A stretch of 64,000 nt of DNA. Origin: Gammaproteobacteria bacterium (GTDB lineage: Bacteria; Pseudomonadota; Gammaproteobacteria; Coxiellales; Coxiellaceae). Of the stretch, positions 20,748 through 36,019 are shown piece after piece. The first letter of the stretch is position 1, and the number at the start of each line of letters is the position of its first letter. The translations under genes were made by a program, and so were the position numbers. The notes below the pieces were generated by a model that worked only from the letters and a program-made list of their open reading frames with translations, was not told the origin of the DNA and made no database searches. The DNA lies in NCBI GenBank assembly GCA_023266215.1, contig JAHFRQ010000001.1:310001-374000 (forward strand), written 5' to 3'.

Positions 20748-20785
20748 GGCGCACCAAATCCGGTTTTCCGATTTTGGTGCGGCGC
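20748..20785. repeat. Hairpin repeat, copy 2
   Basis: Second direct copy, 54 nt after the first, beginning GGCGCACCAAATCCGG and returning CCGATTTTGGTGCGGCGC. It differs from copy 1 mainly at one base in the left arm (CCAAAT against CCCAAT), which improves the pairing with the right arm. It sits 33 nt beyond the stop of the receiver gene. Confidence 0.7.
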
Positions 20786-20817
20786 ATAGTCAATAACGGC
20801 AGAAGTCAGAGCAACCA

Positions 20818-21768
20818 TTAATCTTTGCGAGATGTTGGAATAACTTCTGCCCAATAGTAATTTTCTTTGCCCGCTAAAATAGCGGCTTTATAAAAATGAT
20901 GTGGCCAGTCAGCATGATTAAAATTCCAGGCCTCTTTTCCTAATCCAAAAAATGGGATTTTCGACCGACTGGTTATGTCGACTAATATATTTTCTGACAA
21001 TGATTTTTCAAAATTATTATCAGCAATCCAAGCCTCTAAACTACGATCTGTGTGCACAATAAAATAAGATTTTTCGCCCTTCTTGTTAATGCACAAAAAG
21101 CTACCCTGTTTATCTATAAGATAATATTCGGTTATACTTTTTGTTTTGCAATAGGCAGTGAAAAAATCAATAAAGACAGGATCGGTCAGCGCAAGTTTGT
21201 GCTCTGTTTCTAAATACGCCAGCAATGGTGCAGATATTTTTTGAAAATAGCGCTGTGTCAACTCGGATAAATGAAAAACGAGCTGATCTTCCATGTGCTG
21301 ATCGCCCTTTCGAATAAAACGTTGAATATAATTATGATTAAATCCTTCGATCGCTTTTTCTTGATCTGCAAAACCCGTTAATAGAATTTTGGGAATAAAC
21401 AGATCAGGGCAGGCTTTTGCAAATTCAAATCCATTCATATCAGGCATCTGATAATCAATTAACATGGCCGTAACTTCTCGGTGACGATTGGGGTCAGTTG
21501 AAATTTCGGCAATAGCTGTAATATCAAAGTCAATCGGTGTGTGCTGCAAAATGCCATAATTCTCGTCGTTTTTGATACTTTTTAAAAAGCTTTTTTGCTC
21601 TAAGGGTGATTGATAATGATTTAAAAAATATAGAGCTTCTTTTCCTGATAAGAAAGTTTCAATAGAATTTCGCTCTTCTAAAACGAGCTTAACACAAGCA
21701 AGCAAAGTCTTGTCATCATCGATATAAAGCCAAGTACTAGGATAATAAAATAAAGGTAAACTTTTCAT
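20818..21768 (-). CDS. Response-regulator receiver protein with insertion and unknown output domain
   Basis: A 316-residue protein. Acidic pair YIDDDKTLL (residues ~15-20), phospho-acceptor in MLIDYQMPDMNGFEF (residues ~112-126), conserved Thr in ILLTGF and Lys in FIRKGD mark a receiver domain. About 45 extra residues (KSFLKSIKNDENYG ... DPNRHREV) sit before the phospho-Asp strand, which is unusual. The C-terminal half (residues ~190-316) has no recognised DNA-binding motif. Last gene of the operon with kinase and HTH regulator, 16 nt downstream of the latter. Likely the kinase's partner. Confidence 0.75.
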   Translation of the reverse strand: MKSLPLFYYPSTWLYIDDDKTLLACVKLVLEERNSIETFLSGKEALYFLNHYQSPLEQKSFLKSIKNDENYGILQHTPIDFDITAIAEISTDPNRHREVTAMLIDYQMPDMNGFEFAKACPDLFIPKILLTGFADQEKAIEGFNHNYIQRFIRKGDQHMEDQLVFHLSELTQRYFQKISAPLLAYLETEHKLALTDPVFIDFFTAYCKTKSITEYYLIDKQGSFLCINKKGEKSYFIVHTDRSLEAWIADNNFEKSLSENILVDITSRSKIPFFGLGKEAWNFNHADWPHHFYKAAILAGKENYYWAEVIPTSRKD

Positions 21769-21784
21769 TTTTCAATTCTCACGA

Positions 21785-22423
21785 TTAATTTTTAAAAATT
21801 TTATGCGACTCAATCACAACGCCCAATATTTTTGCTTCTTTTGGATCAAAGGCAATTGTTTTTAAGTCAGCTGCTAGCGGATGAAAATATTTATGCCGGC
21901 CTTCCGCGCTATATTTTTTTAAGACTGCTGCGGCATCGCCTTTAAAACTAATTAAAACATAATCCCCACTTTCAGGCTGCGCATTGGGATTAATAATAAT
22001 TGAAGTTCCACTATAAAAAACAGGCTCATATATATTATTTTTAATGAGCACTGAAAAAATGTTTGTATAATCCAATGCGTAATCTTGCGCTTGCCAGCGA
22101 AGCCAATGAGCTGGCGCTGTTAAATAATTTTTATAATCACGTGCTTCATTAACGGTTAACTCTGGAATTGACATCGCGGGCTGAATTTTTAATTTTTCAT
22201 CTAGCTCAGCTCGACCTAGTAATTGCTCAATAGTCACGCCAAAATAATCTGCAATTAACGTTAAAGTCGATATACGCGGATCGCTAACATCACCTGACAT
22301 CAAACGATGCACCGTTGGCGTTGGCAAATTAATTTCTTTTGCGAGCGCATTTCCCGTTAAATTCGACTGATTTAAAAGGCATTTTAGCACGCTCATCAAA
22401 TTAGCTTGTTCTTTCTGACTCAT
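21785..22423 (-). CDS. HTH transcriptional regulator with S24/LexA-like C-terminal domain
   Basis: An XRE-type helix-turn-helix of 212 residues total (residues ~8-65; GNALAKEINLPTPTVHRLMSG is the recognition part) followed by a LexA/CI-like beta domain (residues ~115-205). The region aligned with the Ser of S24 peptidases (SMEP) reads NIYEP, so the nucleophile appears missing; a Lys pair is present in AVLKKY. A non-cleaving regulator that senses by another route is likely. Its ATG overlaps the kinase stop (ATGA), and the receiver gene follows. Confidence 0.75.
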   Translation of the reverse strand: MSQKEQANLMSVLKCLLNQSNLTGNALAKEINLPTPTVHRLMSGDVSDPRISTLTLIADYFGVTIEQLLGRAELDEKLKIQPAMSIPELTVNEARDYKNYLTAPAHWLRWQAQDYALDYTNIFSVLIKNNIYEPVFYSGTSIIINPNAQPESGDYVLISFKGDAAAVLKKYSAEGRHKYFHPLAADLKTIAFDPKEAKILGVVIESHKIFKN

Positions 22424-24525
22424 TGCTCATCCATCCTGAGTACTATTTTAAAAGCAAAAAATTTGGGAATCATTTGAATATTATTTTCTGCACAAAATTG
22501 CTGAATGTGAATTTCATCAGATCGGCTTGTCACTAGAAATATTCTAGATGCTTCTGATTTACTCAATAAAATAATGTCAATTAAATCTAATCCGTTGTAT
22601 GGTTTTCCAGAAAATTCATAATCAATTAAATAAGTACAGATATTATTTTTATTTTTTTCAATAATAGAAAGCAAGGCTTCTTTTGATTTTGCATATTGCA
22701 AATCAATATTACCGCTCAGTCCCTTAAATCTTTCCTGCCAGGCATGAAAAATGGAAATACTATCATCAACACAAATAACGGTTGAATTTTTTTGAAAAAA
22801 TAATTCATCTAAAAACCAATCGGGGGATTTTTGCAAGGGCAGCGTAATAGTCGCAAAAGCGCCCTGTGATATATTGTTATGAAGCTCAATTTTACCTCCC
22901 CATTGCGACAATGTTTCTTTTGCATGAAAGAGGCCTAACCCAGAACCTGATTTTTTAGTGGTAAAGCCGCGAGCAAAAAGCGATGCGCTAATTTCATCTG
23001 AAATTCCAGACCCATTGTCTGAAATAATAATTTCAACATGCTCATTATTTTTATGCAATGCGATCGTTATTTTATTGCCGTGATTTAACACTGCTTCATA
23101 GCTATTATTAATCAGATTAGTTAAAATCCGTTTCATCTCTGATCGGTCAGCTTGAACAAAAAACCCATACGCCTCGGCTGAAAAGTCATGCAAAATGCAA
23201 ATAGATGGATTTGAAAATGCAGCGCGCCTTTCTGATATAACATAATCCAGTAAAACTGCAATTTGAATAGACGCATCCTGAAACTCTGCAGATTCAGGTA
23301 GAACATTTTTCTTGTCTAAATTATTGGTAATATCTCTAATATGATTAATGGAGTCTCTCAGTAAAATATATTTTGACTCCTCAATTTCTGGCAGGCGCGT
23401 AATAATCATTTCGAGTGCAGTAAGCGGTGAGCGGATGTCGTGGGCGACTTGGGCGGCAATTTTTGTCATTGCCTTATTTCGCTCAGCTTCAATTAATCTT
23501 TCTTCATTTTTTTTAATTATTTTTAAAAGTTTATTAATATGGCTGCTCAGCGCCGAAATTTCATCTTTTCCGATGACATCAACATTTTGAAATACACTAT
23601 TTGATATAATTTTATCTAACTGACTGTGTAAATTTTTAAAATTGGCAATTACCCTTTCAGTTAGGTATTTTGAAATGAAAAATCCAAACACAATAAAAAA
23701 TAAATCAATAATTGAAATTGATAGTAACAGTGATTGTAATGTTTTATTGATCGACGCTGTCGTAACTTTTGCTTTTAGAATATAATAGTAGTTTCCTGCG
23801 GAGCTAGATATGCGTTTAGTTTTGCACTCGCAGCAATCAGGAAGGCTAAGGTAAACAATTTCTTTTAAATGAATCACGTTTTTTGTATTATCTAAATTTT
23901 TATTGTACACGTCACCCAGTAATTGGTAGTTTGGTGTGTATACTTTTATATTTACGAAATCATGCTTAGTTTGCAGTGCTGTCTTAAGAAGCTTATCGAT
24001 AAAATCAAGGCGAATACTTGACTCAAGTATTCTAGTATGACTCTTATTTGACGTCATAATATACTTAAAGGGGCCTGGCATAGATTCACCGCTGCTTAGA
24101 ATAATAGGCGTTCTGAATATTTTACTTTCTCCTGTTATCAATCCTTTGTATGCTGCGCAGTAATGAAATATATTATCGGTAATTTTTCCGTTTGTGGATC
24201 TAATAAATTTCCCTTTCGCATTTGTAACAAAAAAATTGCTAACTTTCAGTTTGCTTGCAAGAGACTTAAGCTGATTGTCTGATGGCAATCCGTCATGTGC
24301 CTCAGTATCTTTCAGGACATACAACGCATCAATCCCTCTTATTTCTACCGCATTCTCAAATTGCAAAAGCATCGACCCAATTTGATTTAAATCCAACTTG
24401 TACGTACTTATGAATATCTTTTTTATATAGTGACTCGCATAAATATATGAAACACAACCAATCAACACCGATAGCAATGTTGAAATTGTAAATATGGCAA
24501 AAAAAACTTTGTTTCTAAAAGTCAT
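22420..24525 (-). CDS. Hybrid sensor histidine kinase with C-terminal receiver
   Basis: Membrane kinase of 701 residues. TM1 (residues ~7-30), periplasmic sensor (~31-265, with a CCEC cysteine cluster near 231-234), TM2 (~266-287), HAMP-like linker, then HisKA with His362 in AAQVAHDIRSPLTA, HATPase with N box NLINNSYEAV (470-479), DNGSGI and GSGLGL, and a receiver (581-701) with DD at 587-588 and Asp635 in YLIDYEF. It follows the methyltransferase by 2 nt. Ligand unknown. Its place beside the hydrazine cluster makes a sensing role for the product or a precursor conceivable. Confidence 0.88.
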   Translation of the reverse strand: MTFRNKVFFAIFTISTLLSVLIGCVSYIYASHYIKKIFISTYKLDLNQIGSMLLQFENAVEIRGIDALYVLKDTEAHDGLPSDNQLKSLASKLKVSNFFVTNAKGKFIRSTNGKITDNIFHYCAAYKGLITGESKIFRTPIILSSGESMPGPFKYIMTSNKSHTRILESSIRLDFIDKLLKTALQTKHDFVNIKVYTPNYQLLGDVYNKNLDNTKNVIHLKEIVYLSLPDCCECKTKRISSSAGNYYYILKAKVTTASINKTLQSLLLSISIIDLFFIVFGFFISKYLTERVIANFKNLHSQLDKIISNSVFQNVDVIGKDEISALSSHINKLLKIIKKNEERLIEAERNKAMTKIAAQVAHDIRSPLTALEMIITRLPEIEESKYILLRDSINHIRDITNNLDKKNVLPESAEFQDASIQIAVLLDYVISERRAAFSNPSICILHDFSAEAYGFFVQADRSEMKRILTNLINNSYEAVLNHGNKITIALHKNNEHVEIIISDNGSGISDEISASLFARGFTTKKSGSGLGLFHAKETLSQWGGKIELHNNISQGAFATITLPLQKSPDWFLDELFFQKNSTVICVDDSISIFHAWQERFKGLSGNIDLQYAKSKEALLSIIEKNKNNICTYLIDYEFSGKPYNGLDLIDIILLSKSEASRIFLVTSRSDEIHIQQFCAENNIQMIPKFFAFKIVLRMDEQ

Positions 24526-24527
24526 TA

Positions 24528-25307
24528 CTATTTCTTTAATTGCAATATTGTATCATTTAGCACTAATGAAATACATCCATCTTGCTGTATAAACTCGGAC
24601 ATTTTCCGTTGAATTTCGATTTCTGGAATTTTCTCAAGATAATTACTTAATAAAAATTTCATTAGTTGCTGTATTGATTTTGTTTCAAATTGACAAGAAA
24701 AATTTGATGCGATGTATTTTTTTTGAATGTCTGAAAATATCTTAGTGCAAACTAATTCAACATCATGATTCGTATGATATGGAATTTCCATTTTGATAAG
24801 CTCAAAAAAATAGGCCCATAATTTAATAAGATCATTATTTTCATTTGCTACAACAATCCACGCTTCACCATTTTCTTTTAAGCAGGCGCGAATGGTGCTT
24901 AAAACAGGCTGAATTTCTGGAACATAATATATTGAGTGGCACATAATTATAATATCAGCAAAGTTCTCTGGCATTTTATCAACAGTATCAAAGATAGATA
25001 GTTCTATATTTGCTTCGTTAAATTTTTTAGTCGCTGATTCACGATAGTCGGAAACTGGTTCAAGCAAAGCTAATTTCAGACGCAAGCGACTGTTTGCTAT
25101 GCTCTTGTATAAATCAAATAATAATTCACCATCGCCCCCGCCAAAATCTAAAATACAAATCTCAGTTTTATTTCGGATAAAGGAATCGAGCATTTCTAGA
25201 AGCTTGCTCATATTTTCACGATGCTCTGTTGAATGCGCTTGAAAAAATTGATATTCTTTCACTAGATTTGAAAAGTCTTTTTTGGTATCTTCGTCTCGCA
25301 TAACCAC
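24528..25307 (-). CDS. Class I SAM-dependent methyltransferase
   Basis: A 259-residue methyltransferase with motif I ILDFGGGDGELLFDLY, acidic strand LALLEP, then a third strand around IIIMCHSIYYVPE, the usual methyltransf_11/12 layout. The C-terminal ~80 residues are variable and helical. It lies 33 nt after the cyclase gene and 2 nt before the kinase, so it belongs to that operon. Methyl acceptor unknown; a small acid such as a pathway intermediate is possible but only inferred from location. Confidence 0.75.
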   Translation of the reverse strand: MVMRDEDTKKDFSNLVKEYQFFQAHSTEHRENMSKLLEMLDSFIRNKTEICILDFGGGDGELLFDLYKSIANSRLRLKLALLEPVSDYRESATKKFNEANIELSIFDTVDKMPENFADIIIMCHSIYYVPEIQPVLSTIRACLKENGEAWIVVANENNDLIKLWAYFFELIKMEIPYHTNHDVELVCTKIFSDIQKKYIASNFSCQFETKSIQQLMKFLLSNYLEKIPEIEIQRKMSEFIQQDGCISLVLNDTILQLKK

Positions 25308-25340
25308 TCTCCATTTAATGCCAATTATACTGAAAGTTAA

Positions 25341-25988
25341 TCATATGTTGTTAACCACAAACACCCGCACTTGCAATCCATCCATACCAGCAATTTTAAA
25401 TGATGGAATAATTAAAAATTGGTAACGGCCCTGTGTTGTGTTTTTTAAATCTAGATTTTCAATGATTAAAATATTATTTGAAAGTAAAATATGATGAACG
25501 GGCAATTCAATCGCTGAATATTGATCAACACTCAAATAGTCTATTCCAACTATTTTCACTTTTGATTCAACCAAAAATTCTGCAGCCTCTGGCTCAATAT
25601 AAACAGCATGATCAGAAAAATTTCCGGTCTTTGATAAATTAGAATTGTTAGTTTTAAAGAAAATAATATCGTTTTGAAAAAAACTATATTCTTTGAGAAA
25701 ATTAAGATTAATTGATCTGTGCTCACTCGGGACTTCAATAATAAGCCCATCGCCTTGTAAATCATCGTGCGAATAATCTGAGCTTGTTTTCCCGCCGCGC
25801 ATAACATGCGCTGGAAAATCAATATGCGTACCCAGATGATTGCTCAAGCTAATTTTCGATAAACAATAATGATTATTTTTATCATCTAATTTTACAATTA
25901 CTTGCTTTTCAAAAGCTGGATCACCTGGAAAGACAGTTAATTCTGAAGACATTTCAACCGTGAGATCTTGCAATTTTAATTTATTCAT
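25341..25988 (-). CDS. Cyclase family (KynB-like) metal-dependent amidohydrolase
   Basis: A 215-residue protein of the cyclase/arylformamidase (PF04199-type) family. The metal-binding motif HLGTHIDFPAHV with a nearby GGKTSSDY and the later HAVYIEPEAAEFL and GIDYLSVD are all present. Family members hydrolyse formyl-kynurenine and similar amides or lactones. It is the first gene of the minus-strand operon, facing the small gene at 26167 and the N-hydroxylase. The substrate is not predictable; no other tryptophan-degradation gene is visible. Confidence 0.8.
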   Translation of the reverse strand: MNKLKLQDLTVEMSSELTVFPGDPAFEKQVIVKLDDKNNHYCLSKISLSNHLGTHIDFPAHVMRGGKTSSDYSHDDLQGDGLIIEVPSEHRSINLNFLKEYSFFQNDIIFFKTNNSNLSKTGNFSDHAVYIEPEAAEFLVESKVKIVGIDYLSVDQYSAIELPVHHILLSNNILIIENLDLKNTTQGRYQFLIIPSFKIAGMDGLQVRVFVVNNI

Positions 25989-26039
25989 TTTGAGTTCCAG
26001 TATAAAAATCTATAATCCGTATATTTTTGCAAAAAACAC

Positions 26040-26068
26040 TTGCCGAGTTAACATTAATGTAATATAGT
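26040..26068 (+). promoter_or_regulatory. Sigma-70-type promoter upstream of the small repeated gene
   Basis: TTGCCG at 26040-26045 and TATAGT at 26063-26068 with a 17-nt spacer. It lies about 100 nt before the ATG at 26167. The second repeat copy near 35.75 kb keeps the -35-like part (TTGTCG) but lacks this -10 box. Confidence 0.5.
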
Positions 26069-26153
26069 TTCGAAACTTAAATGTTTAATTTAAAGCTTGT
26101 TGAAAATTCTACCAGGTTTTAAATGAAAAGCCAGAGAAAACAAGAAAACGCAA

Positions 26154-26399
26154 AAAGGAGCGATTGATGTCAAGTCGAAATAAAAAGCCTCGCTTCAAGA
26201 TAGTAGCGACTCGATATGACGAGATAACACACAACGTGCAGTTGTTGGATATCCAGAATAATGAATTATTCACGGTAAAAGCGCTGGAAATCTTAAAATA
26301 CGATCACTTTTTAACAGAGCTTTCGCCCGATGATCTACGAAGACTCATTTATGGCGTCCATCATGATTTGATGATTTTGGAGAAAAAGGAGATGAGTGA
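26154..26399 (+). repeat. 246-bp perfect direct repeat, left copy
   Basis: Identical base for base, by eye, to 35774-36019. It contains the ribosome site and nearly the whole small gene (26167-26433). A weaker similarity continues upstream: ACACTTGCCGAGTTAACATT here against ACACTTGTCGAGTTAATATT in the right copy. The two copies are 9620 bp apart in the same orientation and enclose the biosynthetic operon. Confidence 0.95.
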
Positions 26400-26433
26400 C
26401 TTTGTGACGCACTTCGAACTTGAGAATACTTGA
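26167..26433 (+). CDS. Small protein of unknown function, copy 1
   Basis: An 88-residue basic protein beginning MSSRNKKPRFKIVATRYDEI and containing LLDIQNNELFTVKALEILKY and LSPDDLRRLIYGVHHDLMIL. I do not recognise it. It has no membrane segment or signal peptide. The ATG at 26167 follows an AAGGAG site seven bases away and is preferred to the TTG at 26164. The first 77 residues are identical to copy 2; the C-terminal tail (DFVTHFELENT) differs. It sits at the head of the biosynthetic operon, about 80 nt before the N-hydroxylase; a regulatory role is possible. Confidence 0.7.
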   Translation: MSSRNKKPRFKIVATRYDEITHNVQLLDIQNNELFTVKALEILKYDHFLTELSPDDLRRLIYGVHHDLMILEKKEMSDFVTHFELENT

Positions 26434-26441
26434 AAAATTTG

Positions 26442-26469
26442 TTGACTAAACTTGTAAAAGTTGTAATAT
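26442..26469 (+). promoter_or_regulatory. Promoter and possible operator of the biosynthetic operon
   Basis: TTGACT at 26442-26447 and TATAAT-like TAATAT at 26464-26469, 16 nt apart, lie about 45 nt before the N-hydroxylase start. The spacer contains an inverted repeat AACTT-GTAA-AAGTT (26449-26462), well placed for a repressor or activator. Confidence 0.55.
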
Positions 26470-26514
26470 CTATTTCAAGTTTTGCTAACGTAAATAATAG
26501 TTTTGGGAACTGTG

Positions 26515-27849
26515 ATGACCAACAATGAAATTAATTTTAAAATTTTTGACCTAATTGGCATTGGCATCGGCGCATTTAATTTGGGCTTGGCTGCATTAAT
26601 GCAAAAAACTAATTTAACCTATAAATTTCTTGATCTCAAAGAAAGCTTTGATTGGCACGATGGAATGTTGCTTGAGAATGCTAAATTGCAAGTTCATTTT
26701 TTGAAAGATTTGGCAAGTTGCGTCGACCCCGCCAATCCATATACTTTTCTTTCTTATTTATCAGAAAAGGGACGAATCTATCAATTTTTAAATAGAAAGC
26801 AGAGCGTAGTGTCAAGGCACGAATTTAGCGATTATTTTAAATGGGCTGCCGCTCAAATTCCAAATCTATGCTTTGGAGAAAAAATTCTTGATGTGCGCTA
26901 TAGCAATAACTTATTTAATATCATTACTAAAAAAAGTAAATTTTTTGCAAAAAACATTGTGGTGGGAACTGGTCGAACTCCGTATATTCCGATTCGTTTT
27001 AGAGAATTTCTAAGTAAAAATTTTTTTCATAATTATAAATTTAAGCAGTCGCTTAAAGAGCTGGATTTTGCTAACAAGCGAATCGCTATTATTGGTGGCG
27101 GACAAAGTGGTGCTGAGGTATTTGATACTCTTATTTCTTTTCAAAGCAAACCAAAAGAAATTATTTGGGCTTCGAAGCGTGTCAATTTTCAAACATTGGA
27201 AGATAGCTGCTTTGCAAATGAATTCTATACGCCGAACTACGTAAAATATTTTTACAGTTTGCCGTCAAATCTTCGCGAGCAAAAATTAGATGAACAGCGA
27301 TTAACAAGTGATGGAATTACGCAAGAATTGTCTAATGAAATTTATAATAAATTATATGAGTTGAAGTATCTTCGTCCGTCAACTATGAGCTTTGAATTAC
27401 TACCACATCAGGAACTATCCAGGGTAATTAAAAAAGGTGATGGCTATCTCATTACTTTATTTAATAAGGAGCAAGGGGATCTAACTGAATATACTGCTGA
27501 TATTGTTATTTTAGCAACAGGCTATCAGTCTTGCATTTCTGAATGTCTGAAAAATCTACCTCTGGGAATCTCAAATACAAAAAGCCCATCCATAAATATA
27601 GATTATTCAGTAAATTGGCGCTGTTCTTCAACCAACAAAATATTTTTGCAGAATGGGGCGAGGCTTACCCATGGTGTAGCAGATCCTAATTTAAGCCTAG
27701 CCGCTTGGCGAAACGCTATCATTATAAATTCGTTATCGAACGAGCAAATTTATAAAGTTGATACGTGTGAACCAATTGTAAATATTAATCAATTTAATAT
27801 TCTTCAAAAAAGTAGTTTAGATGCTAATTTTTCGTTAGAGGCGGCATAA
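26515..27849 (+). CDS. Flavin-dependent L-lysine/L-ornithine N-hydroxylase
   Basis: NADPH-dependent monooxygenase of the IucD/PvdA (K_oxygenase) family that hydroxylates the side-chain amine of lysine or ornithine; about 444 residues. The FAD motif is GIGIGAFNLGLA, the substrate-region block LQVHFLKDLASCVDPANPYTFLSYL is characteristic, the NADPH motif is IIGGGQSGAEVFDTL and a late ATGYQ closes it. I chose ATG 26515 (GGGA six bases upstream). Its stop overlaps the next ATG by 1 nt. No siderophore synthetase is present. Pairing with a cupin/MetRS gene points to hydrazine formation; lysine as substrate is expected but not shown. Confidence 0.9.
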   Translation: MTNNEINFKIFDLIGIGIGAFNLGLAALMQKTNLTYKFLDLKESFDWHDGMLLENAKLQVHFLKDLASCVDPANPYTFLSYLSEKGRIYQFLNRKQSVVSRHEFSDYFKWAAAQIPNLCFGEKILDVRYSNNLFNIITKKSKFFAKNIVVGTGRTPYIPIRFREFLSKNFFHNYKFKQSLKELDFANKRIAIIGGGQSGAEVFDTLISFQSKPKEIIWASKRVNFQTLEDSCFANEFYTPNYVKYFYSLPSNLREQKLDEQRLTSDGITQELSNEIYNKLYELKYLRPSTMSFELLPHQELSRVIKKGDGYLITLFNKEQGDLTEYTADIVILATGYQSCISECLKNLPLGISNTKSPSINIDYSVNWRCSSTNKIFLQNGARLTHGVADPNLSLAAWRNAIIINSLSNEQIYKVDTCEPIVNINQFNILQKSSLDANFSLEAA

Positions 27850-29825
27850 TGTCCAATGCTCTTGAAAAAATTAAAAAAATAAGTCTCATTAATGAAAAAG
27901 ATTACATAATTGGTCTTAACTGTCGCCTATTAATTTTTGAACCATTTTCGAAAACCATGCCTCACAATCATTCTGAAGGCGAGGTGTGGATTTTAATTTC
28001 AGGAGAAATGACTGTTAAAATAAATGATCAAATCATCGACCTCAAGATGGGTAATTTTTTAAAAATAGACCCTCTTGTAAAGCATCAAATTATAAACGGT
28101 GAGCATTCAAGTGTTTTGCACGTATTATGGTGGAATAATGCGAAAAAATTAAAAAATGTTGTCGAACACTTTGTGGATTCTTCCCCAAAAGAAAGCAAGT
28201 ATCAATTAATTATTCCGGCCATTGTTACTCCAAATGGACCTATGCATCTAGGACACGCTGGAGGACCATATATAATAGCGGATGTTTTACGGCGTGCTTT
28301 TAAAATGCAGGGTATCCGCACCTCTACTTTTCTTGGAACGCTAGGACATCAGGAGCATATTCAAATTGCAGCACACAAAGATGGCTCTGATTATTATGCA
28401 TTGGCCAAAAAAAATACTGATTCGATTTTGCAATCTTTTGCGCTTCTTGATATTGAGTATGATTTTTTTCTACATCCATCACCACCAGCTAGATTTAAAG
28501 AAATCATGAGTGAAATTTTTTATGAGCTGTATCATCAGAAAATTATTTACGAAAAGGAAGCTTCGGTTCCCTTTGACAATGACAATAACTGCTTTGTTGT
28601 TGATGCTCATCTCAAAGGTCAGTGCCCAATGTGTCGTGCATTCGTAAGCGGAGTTGAGTGCGAAAACTGCGGCCTCTATCTGGATGATTCGCTTCTACTT
28701 AAACCATCAACGTTAAAAAATGGCACCGTAGAAACAAGACCCTTAAAAAGACTTTACCTAAAGCTCGAACCGATTTCGCAAAAATTAGCGGAACATTATC
28801 AAACCATGTGGCTAACTACAAGCATGCGCACCTATCTTGATCATTGGTTTTCCAGAGATCTTCCAGATGTATGTATAAGCAACCCCTTAACCGAAGGGAT
28901 TAATATTCCTCTGCCGGGTTACAAAAAACAATATTTTACCGTGGCTTTTGAGCATGTTGCGCGATATTTTTTAGCGTTTGAAATGTTTTCGCAAAAAAAA
29001 GGGAGGCCACAAAGCTGGAAAGATTTTGTTTTAAGCGACGAGCATGAACTTACTATCACATTCGGTAATGATAATTTTTTTGCTCGAACTATTTTGGCTC
29101 CCTCTATCTTGATAGCATTAAAATGCGAGGCTGTAATTCCACGCTATTTTCATAGCAACCATTTCATGAATTTAAACAAAAGCAAGTTTTCTACGAGTAA
29201 GAATAATGCTATCTGGGTAAATGAATTTGTTAACGAACATAATAGAGAATTTTTACGCTTCTATTTGATTTATATGCGTCCAGAATTTAGCGAAACGAAT
29301 TTTTCTGTTGACGAATTCAAAAAATTCAATCAAGCATTGTGGAAAGAAGGTTTTGCAAATTATTTATTTAAAATTCAGTCGATTCTAGATAAGCATGAAT
29401 CAAAAATATTACCTGGCGCTGGGGAATTCAGTCATCATGAAGTAAGTTTCTTGCGCATCACTCAAGAGTTGGGCAAAAATATTAATCGATCAATTGCGCC
29501 GCGAAATTTTAATTCTACTTTTTTATGCTCTCAAATTGAAAGGTATGTGCTGGAAGCAATTCGATTTGCAGATAGCGCTACCTCATGGAAACATATGCAG
29601 CTTCATACCCCGCGATCTTCATTGCTAGCAACACAAACCAGACTGTTGCTATATTCTTTAGCAGTTCTAATTGTTGGTTTACACCCTGTTATGCCAAACT
29701 TAACAACACAGTTAGCAAATTGCTTGGGGCTGGGGTCCATAACCACTGCATTATTAGCAGAAGATTGGTTGCAGAAGCCTTTTAATGCTTTTTCGCTTAA
29801 TTCAATTATTGAAATACTACAGTAA
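27849..29825 (+). CDS. Cupin/methionyl-tRNA-synthetase-like fusion (predicted hydrazine synthetase)
   Basis: A 658-residue fusion. Residues ~20-95 are a cupin with metal ligands His39, His41, Glu45 and His79. Residues ~115-650 resemble class I MetRS: HLGH at 133-136 (HIGH motif), a zinc knuckle with Cys259, 262, 271 and 274, KFSTS at 446-450 (KMSKS variant) and a helical tail. Known cupin/MetRS enzymes (Spb40 of the s56-p1 pathway, Tri28 of triacsin) use ATP to adenylate an amino acid and join it to N-hydroxylysine, forming an N-N bond. The gene follows the N-hydroxylase directly, as expected. It is not a housekeeping MetRS. Partner amino acid unknown. Confidence 0.88.
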   Translation: MSNALEKIKKISLINEKDYIIGLNCRLLIFEPFSKTMPHNHSEGEVWILISGEMTVKINDQIIDLKMGNFLKIDPLVKHQIINGEHSSVLHVLWWNNAKKLKNVVEHFVDSSPKESKYQLIIPAIVTPNGPMHLGHAGGPYIIADVLRRAFKMQGIRTSTFLGTLGHQEHIQIAAHKDGSDYYALAKKNTDSILQSFALLDIEYDFFLHPSPPARFKEIMSEIFYELYHQKIIYEKEASVPFDNDNNCFVVDAHLKGQCPMCRAFVSGVECENCGLYLDDSLLLKPSTLKNGTVETRPLKRLYLKLEPISQKLAEHYQTMWLTTSMRTYLDHWFSRDLPDVCISNPLTEGINIPLPGYKKQYFTVAFEHVARYFLAFEMFSQKKGRPQSWKDFVLSDEHELTITFGNDNFFARTILAPSILIALKCEAVIPRYFHSNHFMNLNKSKFSTSKNNAIWVNEFVNEHNREFLRFYLIYMRPEFSETNFSVDEFKKFNQALWKEGFANYLFKIQSILDKHESKILPGAGEFSHHEVSFLRITQELGKNINRSIAPRNFNSTFLCSQIERYVLEAIRFADSATSWKHMQLHTPRSSLLATQTRLLLYSLAVLIVGLHPVMPNLTTQLANCLGLGSITTALLAEDWLQKPFNAFSLNSIIEILQ

Positions 29826-29839
29826 AAACAGGAGCATAT

Positions 29840-31009
29840 ATGTTTCAAGAACTACAGGCGTTACCAGAGGACCCCATTTTACGCTACAGCACGGAATTCA
29901 ATCATGATAATCGCTCACATAAAATAAATCTTACTGTGGGCATGTATTATGATGAAGAAAGTCGAATTCCTGTGTTTCAGGCCGTCCAATTAGCAGAAAA
30001 AGCAATTCTAGAAGCCGGCCACAATAAAAATTACTTTCCTATTGACGGACCTATCGAATATCGTACGCAGGTTTCTGAATTAATCTTGGGAAAGCAGGAT
30101 GAACGGGTAACTGTTTGCTACGCTCCTGGCGGCACTGGAGCGGTTCGATTGGGGGCAGAGCTCATTAAAAAAGCGCGCCCTTCGTCGGCAGTTTGGATCA
30201 GCGATCCCACCTGGAATGTTCATTGTAGTATATTTCAGCAATGTGGCTTTGTGATAAATAAATACCAGTATTTAGAGTCAAACGGCACGCTTCGTTTTTC
30301 TCAAGTTATGCAGTGTCTTTCTCAAGCCAAACCTGGGGATTGTATTGTTTTGCATGGCTGTTGTCATAACCCCACCGGCATTGATCCTACGCCTTCTCAG
30401 TGGAATGCGCTTTTTGAATTACTCAAGGAAAAAAAAGTTACGCCATTTTTTGACATGCCATATCATGGATTTGCCAATGGATTGGAAGAAGATATGTCAC
30501 ATATTCGACTGGCAATAGAAAAATTTGATGATGTCATGGTGGCATATTCTTTTTCAAAAACAATGGGGCTGTATTGCGATAGAGTCGGCGCCTTGCTTGT
30601 TAAAACAAAAAATGACAGCGCGGCAAATATCATCGGAAGTCACTTACGTTTTCTTGCTCGAATGATGTTTTCCAACCCTCCTGCACACGGAATTAGAATT
30701 GTTGAATGCGTATTAAAAAATAAATTTCTGCGAAAACAATGGCAGGAAGAATTAGACTCCTGCAGAAAACGGTTAAAATTTGCGAGAAAAAAAATGGCTC
30801 TTGAGCTTAGTTCCGCCAACTGCAATTTTGCACATCTGGGGAGTGGTAATGGGATGTTCTCGCTTACAGGCCTTAATTCCGATGAGGTATTGAGCCTCAA
30901 AAAAAGATTTGGAATATACCTTTTGCAAAATGGTAGGATTAATATCGCGGCCCTTAACGATCGTAATATTCCTATTATTTGCAACGCTATTCTGCAAGTT
31001 ATTAATTAA
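29840..31009 (+). CDS. PLP-dependent aminotransferase (aspartate/aromatic class)
   Basis: Fold-type I transaminase of 389 residues. The start LQALPEDPILRYSTEF..NLTVGMYYDEE is typical of the AspC/TyrB group; HNPTGIDPT (residues ~176-184), DMPYHGF (205-211) and SFSKTMGLYCDRVG with the PLP lysine Lys240 are seen. An AGGAG site precedes the ATG. Because it lies inside the N-N-forming operon, it probably works on an amino or hydrazino acid intermediate; an ordinary aspartate transaminase role cannot be excluded. Confidence 0.88.
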   Translation: MFQELQALPEDPILRYSTEFNHDNRSHKINLTVGMYYDEESRIPVFQAVQLAEKAILEAGHNKNYFPIDGPIEYRTQVSELILGKQDERVTVCYAPGGTGAVRLGAELIKKARPSSAVWISDPTWNVHCSIFQQCGFVINKYQYLESNGTLRFSQVMQCLSQAKPGDCIVLHGCCHNPTGIDPTPSQWNALFELLKEKKVTPFFDMPYHGFANGLEEDMSHIRLAIEKFDDVMVAYSFSKTMGLYCDRVGALLVKTKNDSAANIIGSHLRFLARMMFSNPPAHGIRIVECVLKNKFLRKQWQEELDSCRKRLKFARKKMALELSSANCNFAHLGSGNGMFSLTGLNSDEVLSLKKRFGIYLLQNGRINIAALNDRNIPIICNAILQVIN

Positions 31010-31027
31010 TTTTCGCGAGAGGAAATT

Positions 31028-31696
31028 GTGAAAGAAAAAATCTCATACCAACATCCTAAAATATTGGATTCATCTGCTGAAAATGTTTGTCACGCAATTA
31101 AAGTAGTTGAAAATGGCGGGGTTGCTATTTTGCCTGCAGATACAGTGTACGGTATTTTTGCAAGATCAGATATGCATGATACTGTGGAGCGCGTTTACAG
31201 CATAAAAAAAAGGGAGAAAAGGAAGCCTTTCGTTATTTATACTAATGCAGAAAAAGTCGAAATGATAGCTTATGTGAATGATATTGGTCGCAAGTTTATA
31301 AATCAAGTATGGCCAAAAGCTCTGTCGCTTATTTTACCCAAGCGTCCAATCATTTCAAATTGGTTTACACATAATAAAGACACTATCGCTGTCATGACTG
31401 CGCGAAACTTTATCATTTCTAGCCTAGTTAAAAATATAAAATATCCCATTTTAGGCACAACTGTAAATATTTCAGGTGAGCCAGAGTTAAAAAAAGGAAT
31501 TGATATTATTCGTTTTGTAGACGAAGTAGACGTTATCATCATAGATGATACAATTCCTATTTATAACAAACCTTCCACAATGATTGACTGTACTCTCAAT
31601 CCACCTCGAATTGCGCGTCTGTCTTCTTTAACGCTAAGGGAGCTACAAAAAATTGTACCGGAACTTCAAGTTGATCTCAGCAGGAAAATTTCATGA
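31028..31696 (+). CDS. Sua5/YrdC/YciO-like protein in the biosynthetic operon
   Basis: A 222-residue YrdC-fold protein starting at GTG 31028 (AGAGGA upstream). VAILPADTVYGI, the basic KKREKRKPF loop and TTVNISGEPE correspond to the ATP/bicarbonate-binding motifs of TsaC/Sua5, which make threonylcarbamoyl-AMP. Sequence LLPADTVYG..KR..KPF is well kept, so the protein may be active. Inside this operon it may carboxylate and adenylate an amine or hydrazine nitrogen, giving a carbamoyl-type group; this is inference. It overlaps the GcvT-like gene (ATGA). Confidence 0.82.
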   Translation: MKEKISYQHPKILDSSAENVCHAIKVVENGGVAILPADTVYGIFARSDMHDTVERVYSIKKREKRKPFVIYTNAEKVEMIAYVNDIGRKFINQVWPKALSLILPKRPIISNWFTHNKDTIAVMTARNFIISSLVKNIKYPILGTTVNISGEPELKKGIDIIRFVDEVDVIIIDDTIPIYNKPSTMIDCTLNPPRIARLSSLTLRELQKIVPELQVDLSRKIS

Positions 31697-32838
31697 TAAA
31701 AGCCACTACATTTTCACGTGTGACACCATATTATCAAAACCATTTAGAGTCAGGTGCAGAAATGATGCTAAAAGGCGGATGGTTGCGTCCAGCGAAATAT
31801 ACATCAACCGAAACAGAGGTAAACAATACTCGCAGAGACATTGGAATTATTGATGCGCACTCTATGGGAAAATTTGAAATATCTGGAAGGGATGCATTTT
31901 CATTTATGCAGTACCTTATCACCAATGACCTGAATAAAATCAAGCAAGGCAGAGGTGGGATATACACTTGCTTGTGTAATGAAAATGGCGGTGTAATCGA
32001 TGATGTTGTTGTTTATTTTATTGATAGAGAAAATTTTTATTTTATTACCAATACGCTTTCCGTATCACGTGTTGATGAATGGATTCGTTGTGTTGCTAAA
32101 AAAAATAATTTTAATGTGCATATACAAAACTCAACTAACAGCATCGCCTATTTAGCATTGCAAGGGCCAAAATCTCCATTAATGATTAATTTGCTTTTTG
32201 GCAGCAATGGAGTCTCTTTGAATTATTTTGAATTCACGAAAATTAACTTGGAAAATGTTCCTGTTCTGTTGGCAAGAACTGGGTATACCGGTGAGATTGG
32301 CTATGAGCTTAATTTTCCTTCCGAATTTGGTTATGTCATTTGGAAATATCTACTTGAGAAGGGAAAACCATACGGCATCACACCAGTTGGTGGTTTAGCT
32401 GTGCAAGTATTAAGAATAGAAAAAGCATATCTGTCGCACGGCACCGATATGTCTGTTGACAATAATCCATTTGAGGTTGGGCTGGGCTGGACGCTTAGTT
32501 TCACAAAAGGCGATTTCCTAGGACGCGAGGAGTTATTGCTTATCCAAAAAAATGGTGTAACGAAAAAATTGTTTGGGTTCGAAATAGAAAGCTGTGCGAA
32601 AGAATGCCAGAAAGGAAATCCAATTTTTTGCAAAGGCAATTATGCTGGTTATATAACATCATGTTGCAAAAGCCCAACGCTTAATAAAATTATTGCTCTT
32701 GGTTTTATAGAAAAACCTTACTGGGAAGATAATCATTTTGCATTAAAAGGAGATGCATTATCTATCTTAAAAAAGGTCAATACCCCTTTCTATGATAATA
32801 AGAAAATCAGAGTCAAAGCCGACTCCAAGCACATTTAA
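31693..32838 (+). CDS. GcvT-like folate-dependent aminomethyltransferase homologue
   Basis: A 381-residue protein of the glycine-cleavage T-protein family. DIGIIDAHSMGKFEISGRDA, GGVIDDVVVY with the catalytic-type Asp (103/104), ALQGPKSP, ARTGYTGEIGYEL and the C-terminal barrel (FLGREELL onward) are all present. Neither gcvH nor gcvP is nearby, so glycine cleavage is unlikely. It could move a one-carbon unit between tetrahydrofolate and an amine or hydrazine intermediate. It is coupled to the Sua5-like gene by a 4-nt overlap. Confidence 0.85.
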   Translation: MIKATTFSRVTPYYQNHLESGAEMMLKGGWLRPAKYTSTETEVNNTRRDIGIIDAHSMGKFEISGRDAFSFMQYLITNDLNKIKQGRGGIYTCLCNENGGVIDDVVVYFIDRENFYFITNTLSVSRVDEWIRCVAKKNNFNVHIQNSTNSIAYLALQGPKSPLMINLLFGSNGVSLNYFEFTKINLENVPVLLARTGYTGEIGYELNFPSEFGYVIWKYLLEKGKPYGITPVGGLAVQVLRIEKAYLSHGTDMSVDNNPFEVGLGWTLSFTKGDFLGREELLLIQKNGVTKKLFGFEIESCAKECQKGNPIFCKGNYAGYITSCCKSPTLNKIIALGFIEKPYWEDNHFALKGDALSILKKVNTPFYDNKKIRVKADSKHI

Positions 32839-32855
32839 TAATTGATGGAAATTGA

Positions 32856-34073
32856 ATGCAAAATAACTTTGAGATTTATAACAAGTACATTTTTATTATA
32901 TATAGAATGCTTTCAAGAGCTTACTTTCATCTTCCTATTTTGTTGATTTTTCTTTTAACAAAATTGTCTAGTTTAATCTGTGCTGAATTTATGCTAGCGA
33001 TTTACGCCTTGTCAATTGCTGCTTTTTCAACCCTAAATACATTTTTAATAAAAAAAGAAATTAAATTAAAGTATATAATTGCAGGTGGCGAAATATGCAA
33101 GGCGATTGGATTATTCCTTATTGTTTTCTTTAACTCTTCAGAGTTATATATAGCTTTGGGGCAGTTAATTGGTGGTCTCGGGTTTGCATTGTGTATTGGA
33201 ACAGACTCTAGTCTTCTGCGTTCACAATACTTAAATAATGGACAGGAAGTGTATCAAAAAATAGAGTCTAGCTCTATGTCATTAGTTTTTCTTGTCATAT
33301 TTCTAGCTGGAAACATTGGGAGTTTTCTATATTCTATTCATTCTACGCTTCCATTTTATATTAGCATTTTTACAACGCTAGTCTCATCACTAATTATTTT
33401 ATCATTTCATGAGCCGCAGAAAAAATCTGATGATATTTTAAAAAATGCATCATATACCGTCGGTTTGCAAAATAAAATTTTTAACATCGATTCAATGATC
33501 ATTTATTGGATGTGCTATTACGTGATAGTTAGAGCAACTGTACTTGCATTATTTGTTGGCTTTTTACCACTATTACTGGAAAGCAAAGCAATTTCGATAG
33601 AGTATTTTGGATTTTTCCTTGGATTCTTTTCCATCTGCGCTGCTGTAAGCGCTCGTTATATTACCAAGAGTTTTCTTGACTGTCACAAATTATTTTCTTC
33701 GATGCTGACAGCGATTTTGCTATGCATGAGCGTGTCTCTTTTTACCTTTTTCAGTAGCAATATGGGATGGCTAATTGGTATGGCCTTATTAGGTGCTGCA
33801 GCCGGAGCTGTTAGACCTCTTGCTCTTTCTCAAATTAGTCAAAAAATTTCTTCCATTATTGAAACAAAAATTATTCTTTCAAAGATGGAAGCCATGTACG
33901 GTATAGCAAATGGATTTTTATTATTTATTGGTGGAATTCTAGCTATTCTTTATGGCTTAAGGTCATGCTTTCTCCTAATAAGCCTGTTACCAATTTTATT
34001 TACGATTAGCGCCCCGCTTGTAACCTTTTTAAGAGCGCGTAAAAATAAAGTGCAACCCATTCATCAAAGCTAG
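32856..34073 (+). CDS. MFS transporter (probable product exporter)
   Basis: A 405-residue protein with about twelve hydrophobic helices and a charged central loop near residues 185-205 (SFHEPQKKSDD), the layout of the major facilitator superfamily. Loop motifs are weak, so the substrate class cannot be named. It lies 17 nt after the GcvT-like gene and 19 nt before the dehydrogenase, and the most economical role is export of, or self-protection from, the pathway's product. Confidence 0.8.
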   Translation: MQNNFEIYNKYIFIIYRMLSRAYFHLPILLIFLLTKLSSLICAEFMLAIYALSIAAFSTLNTFLIKKEIKLKYIIAGGEICKAIGLFLIVFFNSSELYIALGQLIGGLGFALCIGTDSSLLRSQYLNNGQEVYQKIESSSMSLVFLVIFLAGNIGSFLYSIHSTLPFYISIFTTLVSSLIILSFHEPQKKSDDILKNASYTVGLQNKIFNIDSMIIYWMCYYVIVRATVLALFVGFLPLLLESKAISIEYFGFFLGFFSICAAVSARYITKSFLDCHKLFSSMLTAILLCMSVSLFTFFSSNMGWLIGMALLGAAAGAVRPLALSQISQKISSIIETKIILSKMEAMYGIANGFLLFIGGILAILYGLRSCFLLISLLPILFTISAPLVTFLRARKNKVQPIHQS

Positions 34074-34092
34074 CTCTTACGGAATAGAATAT

Positions 34093-35259
34093 ATGAATAT
34101 TGTTGTATTTGGTGCGGGTGAAATGGGTAAAGCAATATGCACTTATTTTTTAAAATTTCAAAAAATTGAGAGTCTCACATTAATTGATATTAATAGCAGT
34201 CAACTTAAAAGAGCTTCAGAAAATTTATCAAGATATGTCTGCATTGATAAACTGATATTGAATAATTCCGATAATATTGAAGAAATTATTTCTGCATGTA
34301 ATATAGTTTTTGCTGCTGTACCATGGCAAGCTCATGCTGAAATTATTAATTTAGTATGTCAATATGACAAACCAATGCTTTCGGTCACCAGGCCCAACTA
34401 CAGTGAAATATCAAAATTGGAAAATCAGCTGCAAAAAATGGTCAATCCAGTAGTGGTGGGCTGCGGCTTAGAGCCTGGGTTAACGGAAATAATGGCACTT
34501 TATTGTGCGAACTTATTTGATCATTTAGATGAGCTGCATATCAAGTGTGGGGGAATAACACGCATACCTTCTGACAATATTTTTAAGCATAAAACATTGT
34601 TTGGAACTCGCTATCTGCCAATCTCAATGCGAGATGCCTATACTATTAAAAACAAGAAAAAAATCAAGATTGCTCGATTTTCAGACGCAGAAGAAATTGA
34701 TATCTTGAATTTGGGAAAGCTGGAGGCATGGCATGATGGAATGGTGCCATGGTTATATAAATATCCAGAAATTGCATCAGCGCACACGGTTACACAAAAA
34801 ACACTGCGTTGGCCAGGGTTTTCAGAAACCGTCAACCAGTTAGATCGACTGGGTCTTTTAAGTGAAGAGCAAATTCAAATTGGCGAAATTGCGCTTTCCC
34901 CAAAACAATTTCTTGAGTATTTTTACGAGCATGACGTTAAATTAAATAATGATAATAATGTATCTTTATTAAAAATCATAGCAACAGGAAAGCACAAAAA
35001 AAATAATATGAAAAAAGTTTTCTTAAGTCTTATAGCCACAAATCGCACTGATATGGGATTAAATTCAATGGCATTTATTACTGGATTTTCGGTATCTCTT
35101 ATTGGCGTGATGCTGCTCCAAGGGAAAATAAATGAGCATGGCTTTGTCAGGCCCGAGAAAATTATTTGTGGCGAGCCATGTAATTTTTTGATGGAAAGTT
35201 TAAAATCATTCGGTATTGAAATTTCCATCAACACAGGGATCTACTCTGACAAATCTTAA
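34093..35259 (+). CDS. Saccharopine-dehydrogenase-like oxidoreductase
   Basis: A 388-residue NAD(P)-dependent enzyme: Rossmann motif VVFGAGEMGKA at the start, TLIDINSSQLKRA after strand 2, VVVGCGLEPGLTEIMA in the middle, as in saccharopine dehydrogenase and lysine 6-dehydrogenase. Saccharopine is an N6-substituted lysine, and the expected N-N product of the first two enzymes is also one, so oxidation at lysine C6 to release the free hydrazino acid is chemically plausible. This is inference. Last intact gene of the operon. Confidence 0.82.
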   Translation: MNIVVFGAGEMGKAICTYFLKFQKIESLTLIDINSSQLKRASENLSRYVCIDKLILNNSDNIEEIISACNIVFAAVPWQAHAEIINLVCQYDKPMLSVTRPNYSEISKLENQLQKMVNPVVVGCGLEPGLTEIMALYCANLFDHLDELHIKCGGITRIPSDNIFKHKTLFGTRYLPISMRDAYTIKNKKKIKIARFSDAEEIDILNLGKLEAWHDGMVPWLYKYPEIASAHTVTQKTLRWPGFSETVNQLDRLGLLSEEQIQIGEIALSPKQFLEYFYEHDVKLNNDNNVSLLKIIATGKHKKNNMKKVFLSLIATNRTDMGLNSMAFITGFSVSLIGVMLLQGKINEHGFVRPEKIICGEPCNFLMESLKSFGIEISINTGIYSDKS

Positions 35260-35298
35260 TCTAAAAATGTTATTCAATTCTTAACTGAGCAGCAAGCA

Positions 35299-35720
35299 AT
35301 GAACACATTAACATTACCTCGACAAATTGCCATAGGAGATTTTTTTCTGCCATTTTTATTTATTATTATGTGGAGTTCTGGTTATGTTGTTGGGAAGCTG
35401 GGCTTGCATTTTGCAGGGCCGTATACATTAATATTTATTCGATTTTCAAGTGCTGCTGCAATCATGTTCTTAGTATCTTTGTTTACGAAAGCACGTTGGC
35501 CAACATCTCGGCTTGGCTTTCGTTAATTAATTCAATCGGAGCAGTTACAGTTTTGTTTGTATTAATGAAGCGCGGTGAAGCTAGCAAAGTCTCAAGTCTC
35601 TTTCATTTAATTCCAGGCGTGACCGCAATGATGAGCTATGTCATTTTGGGTGAAACACTATCTCCCATTGTATTTATGGGCTTTGCAGTAACCGCACTGG
35701 CGGTTTATTTGAGTCACTAA
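35299..35720 (+). pseudogene. EamA/DMT-family transporter remnant
   Basis: The first frame gives the N-terminal ~75 residues of an EamA permease (FIIMWSSGYVVGKLGLHFAG) and stops at 35526. A second frame carries the C-terminal part (WLSLINSIGAVTVLFVLMKR, then SLFHLIPGVTAMMSYVILGE). Together they cover only about half of a normal ~290-residue EamA protein, so both an internal deletion of roughly 150 residues and a frameshift have occurred. It is not functional. It lies inside the repeat-bounded segment. Confidence 0.85.
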
Positions 35721-35773: not shown

Positions 35774-36019
35774 AAAGGAGCGATTGATGTCAAGTCGAAA
35801 TAAAAAGCCTCGCTTCAAGATAGTAGCGACTCGATATGACGAGATAACACACAACGTGCAGTTGTTGGATATCCAGAATAATGAATTATTCACGGTAAAA
35901 GCGCTGGAAATCTTAAAATACGATCACTTTTTAACAGAGCTTTCGCCCGATGATCTACGAAGACTCATTTATGGCGTCCATCATGATTTGATGATTTTGG
36001 AGAAAAAGGAGATGAGTGA
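35774..36019 (+). repeat. 246-bp perfect direct repeat, right copy
   Basis: Identical to 26154-26399 (see there). Together the copies bracket the N-hydroxylase to EamA-remnant segment. The right copy is preceded by only a shortened version of the upstream region and no clear -10 box. Confidence 0.95.

What the first reader, a model, noticed from the sequence alone, without database searches (positions are those of the whole stretch)
27849..29825. Cupin/MetRS fusion keeps metal ligands, HIGH-like motif and zinc knuckle
His39, His41, Glu45 and His79 of the cupin, HLGH, four zinc-type cysteines and a KFSTS loop are all present, so both halves look active. The KMSKS and pocket residues differ from MetRS, suggesting another amino acid partner.
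Basis: partly seen in the sequence, partly recalled or inferred. Interest (0 to 1): 0.7.

Follow-up and report, generated by a model that had tools for sequence, protein, structure and literature searches.

The report
Glutamate-type hydrazine synthetase in an operon
This bacterial gene very probably makes an enzyme that joins two nitrogen atoms by linking modified lysine to glutamate, a known enzyme type found here in an unusual gene cluster that may make an unknown natural product.

Summary
ORF 27849-29825 (658 aa) is an intact cupin/MetRS-like didomain protein with H39, H41, E45, H79, HLGH, C259/C262/C271/C274 and KFSTS at the places named. It belongs to the known hydrazine synthetases (PyrN/Spb40/Tri28). 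One premise fails: KFSTS also occurs in archaeal-type MetRS. The pocket differs from MetRS where it matters (Asp52 to Leu165, Trp253 to Ala366, His301 to Arg413) and matches the two glutamate enzymes at hand: PyrN, solved with a glutamyl-adenylate analogue (9L8V), and the Rhodococcus enzyme. These and the other saccharopine-dehydrogenase-linked enzymes form one clade (support 100/99). The AF2 model fits PyrN (Z 43) better than MetRS (Z 33 or less). The gene sits in a tight seven-gene operon: lysine N-hydroxylase, synthetase, AspC-like aminotransferase, TsaC-like, GcvT-like, MFS, saccharopine-dehydrogenase-like. The three middle enzymes were seen beside no other synthetase locus examined. The operon lies in a 16-kb insertion between pilB and apaH and is bounded by 246-bp identical direct repeats. 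The enzyme is a new member of a known kind; its final product is unknown.

The parts
27849..29825 (+). Cupin/MetRS-like didomain hydrazine synthetase (658 aa); cupin about residues 20-97, MetRS-like 114-658
27963..28085 (+). Cupin zinc ligands H39, H41, E45 ... H79 (DNA span of residues 39-79)
   Evidence: match PyrN H50/H52/E56/H90
28245..28256 (+). HLGH (HIGH signature), residues 133-136
28341..28343 (+). Leu165 at the place of MetRS Asp52 (alpha-amino contact in MetRS, recalled)
28623..28670 (+). Zinc knuckle C259-x2-C262 ... C271-x2-C274
28944..28946 (+). Ala366 at the place of MetRS Trp253
29085..29087 (+). Arg413 at the place of MetRS His301; proposed contact with the glutamate side-chain carboxylate
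29184..29198 (+). KFSTS loop (KMSKS equivalent), residues 446-450
26503..27849 (+). Lysine/ornithine N-monooxygenase (TTG 26503 or ATG 26518), supplies the N-hydroxyamine; overlaps the synthetase start by 1 base
   Evidence: PF13434 343.7 bits; gaps
29840..31009 (+). AspC/TyrB-type aminotransferase; Schiff-base Lys and the two substrate carboxylate Args aligned with E. coli AspC
   Evidence: roles of the residues recalled
31028..31696 (+). TsaC/Sua5-like carbamoyl-adenylate enzyme, second copy in the genome
   Evidence: PF01300 120.6 bits, TIGR00057 125.5 vs cut-off 123.2
31693..32838 (+). GcvT-like tetrahydrofolate aminomethyltransferase, extra copy beside a housekeeping GcvT elsewhere
   Evidence: PF01571 240 bits
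32856..34073 (+). MFS transporter, likely exporter
   Evidence: PF07690 50.9 bits
34093..35259 (+). Saccharopine-dehydrogenase-like oxidoreductase, proposed to cleave the hydrazine adduct (aza-saccharopine)
   Evidence: PF16653 83.8 bits
26154..26399 (+). Left copy of the 246-bp perfect direct repeat flanking the operon
35774..36019 (+). Right copy of the 246-bp perfect direct repeat

Best explanation
The protein is a PyrN-type hydrazine synthetase. Step 1 (made next door, inferred): the monooxygenase at 26503-27849 turns L-lysine into N6-hydroxylysine. Step 2 (inferred from PyrN): the MetRS-like domain adenylates L-glutamate with ATP, holding its side-chain carboxylate with Arg413 in a pocket that has lost the methionine-pocket Asp52, Trp253 and His301, and passes the glutamyl group to the N-hydroxyl oxygen of N6-hydroxylysine instead of to tRNA. 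Step 3 (inferred from PyrN/RHS1): the zinc cupin (H39, H41, E45, H79) rearranges this unstable ester so that the glutamate nitrogen bonds to the lysine N6, giving the hydrazine analogue of saccharopine. Step 4 (inferred, weaker): the saccharopine-dehydrogenase-like protein cleaves it to 2-hydrazinoglutarate and aminoadipate semialdehyde. Step 5 (speculative): the AspC-like, TsaC-like and GcvT-like enzymes tailor the product, which the MFS protein exports. What is shown here: the gene, its motifs, its pocket letters, its clade, its fold prediction and its operon. The confidence is for steps 2 and 3 with glutamate.
For: Domain make-up and catalytic residues. Best solved match by sequence and fold is the PyrN C-terminal domain with L-glutamyl-sulfamoyl-adenosine: phmmer 216 bits against 153.7 for the best MetRS; Foldseek E 2.4e-45; VIA Z 43.4, 525 aligned, rmsd 2.1, against 33.2 for the best MetRS. 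AF2 model mean pLDDT 89.8 from 41 sequences. Pocket, E. coli positions 52/253/301: canonical MetRS D/W/H in 20 of 20 rows; window L/A/R; PyrN V/A/R; Rhodococcus A/A/R; Mesorhizobium H/T/R (110 rows examined). All 20 saccharopine-dehydrogenase-linked rows lack Asp52 (two of them, L022 and L036, are one record), and 17 of the 19 with the column present have Arg at 301; all 24 rows linked to an Spb39-like FAD oxidase keep Asp52 and none has Arg. Nine further Streptomyces loci are D/W/H with no such dehydrogenase hit. With the pocket columns left out, PyrN, Rhodococcus, Pseudomonas, Mesorhizobium and window rows form one clade, 100/99, in a 39-row tree and 98 SH-aLRT in a 94-row tree. The R. jostii enzymes made the glutamate product in vivo (PMC8664883). 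N-hydroxylase and saccharopine-dehydrogenase-like genes lie in the same tight operon.
Against: No biochemistry; closest relative only 35% identical. Pocket loss and dehydrogenase linkage map to one change each on the tree, so they are one event and not independent replicates. Two of the 19 linked rows (Pseudomonas L057, L065) have Ser at 301. Positions 52/253/301 come from alignment and recalled E. coli numbering; no ligand was docked and no coordinates were at hand. For the cleavage step a review names an amino acid oxidase in the formycin/pyrazofurin pathways (PMC8724604, passages), and disrupting the related tri23/tri24 dehydrogenase genes did not affect triacsin (PMC10445470, passage).
Confidence: 0.85

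Rival explanations
1. A hydrazine synthetase of the same family that uses a different acidic amino acid (aspartate, 2-aminoadipate) or a different N-hydroxyamine (N5-hydroxyornithine, N-hydroxydiamine).
For: Arg413 would bind any side-chain carboxylate; the window pocket is not identical to PyrN's (string AITLAHVYNAR against SFTVALAFNLR); the N-hydroxylase matches a family covering both lysine and ornithine.
Against: Both characterised members of its clade use glutamate; a saccharopine-dehydrogenase-like partner fits the lysine-glutamate adduct, which is a saccharopine analogue.
Confidence: 0.1
2. A glycine-type hydrazine synthetase (like Spb40, Tri28, AzsN) that feeds hydrazinoacetic acid.
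For: Same family and same didomain layout.
Against: Glycine-type rows such as the S. fragilis azs locus (L103) keep Asp52 and Trp253 and carry an Spb39-like oxidase gene; the window has lost both residues and no hit to that oxidase was found in it; it lies in another clade.
Confidence: 0.03
3. A second methionyl-tRNA synthetase, or a Met-Lys peptide ligase as proposed in 2010 (PMC2922099).
For: MetRS fold with helical C-terminal bundle; KFSTS as in archaeal-type MetRS.
Against: Methionine pocket lost; the genome has a separate canonical MetRS with D/W/H (L002); cupin fusion and operon; all NCBIfam MetRS scores far below cut-off (best 236.8 of 587).
Confidence: 0.02

Closest known systems
PyrN (pyrazomycin hydrazine synthetase; PDB 9L8V, same chain family as 9VQ4, for the C-terminal domain)
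   Same: Cupin + MetRS-like didomain, same metal-ligand pattern, pocket signature (no Asp52, Ala at 253, Arg at 301), same clade, best structural match
   Different: About 27% identity in the MetRS-like part; second zinc knuckle lost here; the operon here has no gene recognised for C-nucleoside assembly
Rhodococcus jostii RHA1 RHS1 cupin + standalone MetRS-like protein (L030; annotated near-copy L029)
   Same: Glutamate-using clade, N-hydroxylase and saccharopine-dehydrogenase-like gene adjacent
   Different: Cupin and MetRS-like part are separate proteins; neighbours are ATP-grasp, lysine 2,3-aminomutase and others
Mesorhizobium amorphae pM0123d didomain protein (L022)
   Same: Closest relative found (35%), didomain, in a run MFS - saccharopine dehydrogenase - N-hydroxylase - synthetase
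   Different: No aminotransferase/TsaC-like/GcvT-like set hit; uncharacterised as far as I know
Spb40 / Tri28 / AzsN (glycine hydrazine synthetases)
   Same: Didomain layout and chemistry (PMC11705231, PMC10445470 passages)
   Different: The AzsN row (L103) keeps Asp52/Trp253, lies in another clade and has a FAD oxidase partner; AzsN has an extra carrier domain

Membership tests
Cupin/MetRS-like hydrazine synthetase (PyrN/Spb40 family) | N-terminal single cupin fused to, or beside, a MetRS-like protein | tested here: met
   Cupin_2 30-94, tRNA-synt_1g 121-498
Cupin/MetRS-like hydrazine synthetase (PyrN/Spb40 family) | Cupin metal ligands incl. the invariant catalytic Glu (PyrN E56) | tested here: met
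   H39/H41/E45/H79 present, at least 90% conserved in 41 rows
Cupin/MetRS-like hydrazine synthetase (PyrN/Spb40 family) | Intact ATP-binding signatures (HxGH and the KFSTS Lys) | tested here: met
   H133, G135, H136 and K446 invariant in 41 rows
Cupin/MetRS-like hydrazine synthetase (PyrN/Spb40 family) | N-hydroxylase gene next to it | tested here: met
   PF13434, 1.5e-102, gene overlaps by 1 base
Cupin/MetRS-like hydrazine synthetase (PyrN/Spb40 family) | Groups with the family and apart from canonical MetRS | tested here: met
   (canonical MetRS rows split off, 100/100)
Cupin/MetRS-like hydrazine synthetase (PyrN/Spb40 family) | Forms an N-N bond in vitro or in vivo | not testable with these tools
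   Needs enzyme assay
Glutamate-specific (PyrN-type) subgroup | Pocket without Asp52/Trp253 and with Arg at the His301 place | tested here: met
   L165/A366/R413
Glutamate-specific (PyrN-type) subgroup | In one clade with PyrN and the RHA1-type enzyme | tested here: met
   100/99 with pocket columns left out
Glutamate-specific (PyrN-type) subgroup | Activates L-glutamate | not testable with these tools
   Needs ATP-PPi exchange
Methionyl-tRNA synthetase | Methionine pocket (E. coli L13, D52, W253, Y260, H301; recalled) | tested here: not met
   I, L, A, Y, R at these places; only Tyr260 kept
Methionyl-tRNA synthetase | NCBIfam metG score over cut-off | tested here: not met
   236.8 of 587; 210.6 of 336.35

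The most novel reading that the evidence does not exclude
The operon makes a so far unknown hydrazine metabolite: 2-hydrazinoglutarate that is carried on by a dedicated carbamoyl-adenylate (TsaC-like) enzyme and a folate one-carbon (GcvT-like) enzyme plus a dicarboxylate aminotransferase, a combination seen beside no other hydrazine synthetase examined here, on a mobile island in a bacterium whose examined relatives lack the synthetase.
Probability: 0.4. Interest if true: 0.65.

Novelty: new member of a known kind. Interest (0 to 1): 0.42.

Why it matters
Few hydrazine synthetases of the glutamate type are characterised. This adds a distant, fused one with a pocket that can be read against a solved glutamyl-adenylate-analogue complex, so substrate prediction for the clade becomes testable. 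If the operon reading is right, it puts two primary-metabolism enzyme types (TsaC-like, GcvT-like) into hydrazine natural-product chemistry.

Tried and rejected
A single-sequence scan of genome contigs found no relative; the alignment-based scan gave 80 loci of 367 confirmed, so the loci are the best-scoring ones, not a census. KFSTS as evidence against methionine: rejected. Search for PyrN-type enzymes in 343 Streptomyces genomes with the Rhodococcus protein found nine places in eight genomes, all of the Asp52 kind; it did not find PyrN itself, which came only from the PDB. Independent-contrast test of pocket loss against dehydrogenase linkage: one pair only, no power. GC content of the operon (0.335-0.390) does not stand out from the window (0.325-0.420), so composition alone does not show transfer. 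Promoter-like sites near 26442: number in the region only moderately above shuffles (53 against 37.8, sd 6.3), not used. No tRNA gene in the window. Plasmid searches with the TsaC-like, GcvT-like and small repeated proteins gave only ordinary relatives or nothing. Literature: six searches of the open library listed no paper that I recognised as joining hydrazine synthetases with TsaC-like or GcvT-like genes; subscription papers (among them the 2024 Matsuda phylogeny, known to me only through passages of PMC11705231) were not readable.

What I saw of papers: PMC8664883 parts 1-4 of 7; PMC2922099 passages and part 1 of section 7; PMC11705231, PMC10445470 and PMC8724604 passages; PMC13274452 one passage (a reference); all others search listings only. 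Roles of MetRS D52/W253/H301, of the AspC arginines and of TsaC/GcvT residues are recalled.
Full report
What was checked. The open frame 27849-29825 on the plus strand encodes 658 residues with an ATG start. Pfam gives a cupin at 30-94 and a class I methionyl-type synthetase at 121-498.

What it is. Didomain proteins of this make-up, next to a lysine N-hydroxylase, are the hydrazine synthetases. PMC8664883 (parts 1-4 of 7 read) shows for PyrN that the MetRS-like part uses ATP, needs no tRNA and joins glutamate to the N-hydroxyl of N6-hydroxylysine, and that the zinc cupin rearranges the ester to the N-N bonded product; E56A and K458A abolish or nearly abolish activity. The window has E45 at the PyrN E56 place and the KFSTS lysine K446. 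By sequence the best solved match is 9vq4/9l8v, 216 bits against 153.7 for the best MetRS. The fold search names 9l8v as the PyrN C-terminal domain with L-glutamyl-sulfamoyl-adenosine. The AF2 model (mean pLDDT 89.8) fits it at Z 43.4 and MetRS at 33.2 or less. Only the MetRS-like part was compared in this way; the cupin rests on Pfam and conserved residues.

Which amino acid. I aligned the MetRS-like part of 110 rows: 20 canonical MetRS of the window's own genome and related genomes, the PyrN chain, the window, and one synthetase for each other locus then fetched that had one; L001 (the window itself) and L030 (near-copy of L029) were left out. At the places of E. coli MetRS 12, 13, 15, 52, 253, 256, 257, 260, 297, 300, 301 the canonical rows read A L/F Y D W A P Y I/N F H, as E. 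coli MetRS does by recall, which supports the mapping. The window reads A I T L A H V Y N A R. Rows linked to a saccharopine-dehydrogenase-like gene (over 60 bits to the window's or the Rhodococcus protein): 20 of 20 lack Asp52, and 17 of the 19 with the last column present have Arg at 301; the other two are Pseudomonas rows with Ser. L022 and L036 are the same record. Rows linked to an Spb39-like FAD oxidase (over 90 bits): 24 of 24 keep Asp52 and 0 of 24 have Arg. The PyrN chain reads V/A/R and the Rhodococcus rows A/A/R at 52/253/301. The Rhodococcus jostii set was shown to make the glutamate product (PMC8664883), and locus L029 carries the cupin accession named there, WP_007299751. Nine more Streptomyces synthetases are D/W/H without such a dehydrogenase hit.

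Tree. With the 11 pocket columns left out, the linked rows and PyrN form one clade: SH-aLRT 98 in a 94-row quick tree and 100/99 in a 39-row careful tree, the 39 rows being my choice from the 94. The window pairs with Mesorhizobium (100/99). Because both traits change once, their association is a single event; the argument for glutamate is clade membership plus the Arg plus two characterised members, not repeated correlation. The window and Mesorhizobium branches are long.

Operon. Seven plus-strand genes run with gaps of -4 to 19 bases from 26503 to 35259: N-hydroxylase, synthetase, aminotransferase, TsaC-like, GcvT-like, MFS, saccharopine-dehydrogenase-like. The aminotransferase aligns with E. 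coli AspC over its whole length, including its lysine and both substrate arginines (roles recalled). The GcvT-like protein aligns with T. maritima T-protein at 226.8 bits with the IDD and TGYTGE stretches kept. The TsaC-like protein keeps the K-x-R...KP and ST-x-ID stretches. The genome has a separate Sua5/TsaC and a separate GcvT elsewhere, so the operon copies are extra. In the BLAST table (112 sources, E 1e-6, flanks up to 12 kb, many shorter) the aminotransferase, TsaC-like and GcvT-like proteins hit only the window and, for the first two, L001, which is the window's own locus. The dehydrogenase-like protein resembles the glutamate-forming saccharopine reductases, and its highest-scoring plasmid hits are the Rhodococcus glutamate cluster and then M. 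amorphae. The literature is split on who cleaves: PMC8664883 mentions PyrL, a saccharopine dehydrogenase, as suggested; PMC8724604 names an amino acid oxidase; tri23/tri24 mutants still made triacsin (PMC10445470). In this window no Spb39-like oxidase was hit, so the dehydrogenase-like gene is the only candidate seen.

Setting. Among 55 relatives searched with the synthetase, 52 matched at E 1e-3, but only the own genome gave a full-length match including the cupin; the others are MetRS-type hits of at most 164 bits and two short cupin hits. In 369 genomes of the class, 1 of 369, the own one, passed 1e-40, a strict limit that ordinary family members may fail. The pilB and apaH genes that flank the region lie 16.0 kb apart here, but 0.7, 0.8 and 1.4 kb apart in G002, G013 and G028, the three other genomes of the 34 searched in which hits to both genes lie close together on one contig; in the rest one gene was not matched, or the two lie on different contigs or far apart. 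So 20.5-36.5 kb is probably an insertion in this lineage. Within it the operon is bounded by two 246-bp identical direct repeats, 26154-26399 and 35774-36019, the only two copies found in the genome. This suggests recent duplication or arrival as a unit; the mechanism is unknown.

Verdict. A new, distant member of a known enzyme kind with a predicted glutamate specificity, in an operon whose tailoring genes are unusual. The enzyme itself is not surprising to a specialist; the product of the operon is the open question.

Noticed in passing
26143-26399 and 35764-36019: Near-identical 257-bp direct repeats (246 bp identical) on both sides of the operon, each holding the start of a small ORF (88 aa at 26167-26433, 85 aa at 35787-36044) with no Pfam match above cut-off and no plasmid relative.
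   Followed up: partly
20535-36549: 16-kb insertion between pilB and apaH, which are 0.7-1.4 kb apart in three related genomes.
   Followed up: partly
20818-25988: Minus-strand genes in the same insertion: PF04199 cyclase (25341-25988), methyltransferase (24528-25307), histidine kinase (22420-24525), HTH/S24 regulator (21785-22423), receiver protein (20818-21768); possibly regulation or tailoring of the operon.
   Followed up: no
35299-35720: Remnant of an EamA exporter gene: N- and C-terminal pieces in different frames (C-terminal part PF00892; N-terminal piece read by eye).
   Followed up: no
36061-36337: Inverted repeat with 67-nt arms, 91% complementary, 143 nt apart, just outside the right direct repeat.
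   Followed up: no
20694-20790: Two 43-nt copies, 93% alike, 54 nt apart start to start, upstream of pilB.
   Followed up: no
L057 and L065: Pseudomonas synthetases linked to a saccharopine-dehydrogenase-like gene but with Tyr/Val/Ser in place of the Asp52/Trp253/His301 set; they may use yet another amino acid.
   Followed up: no
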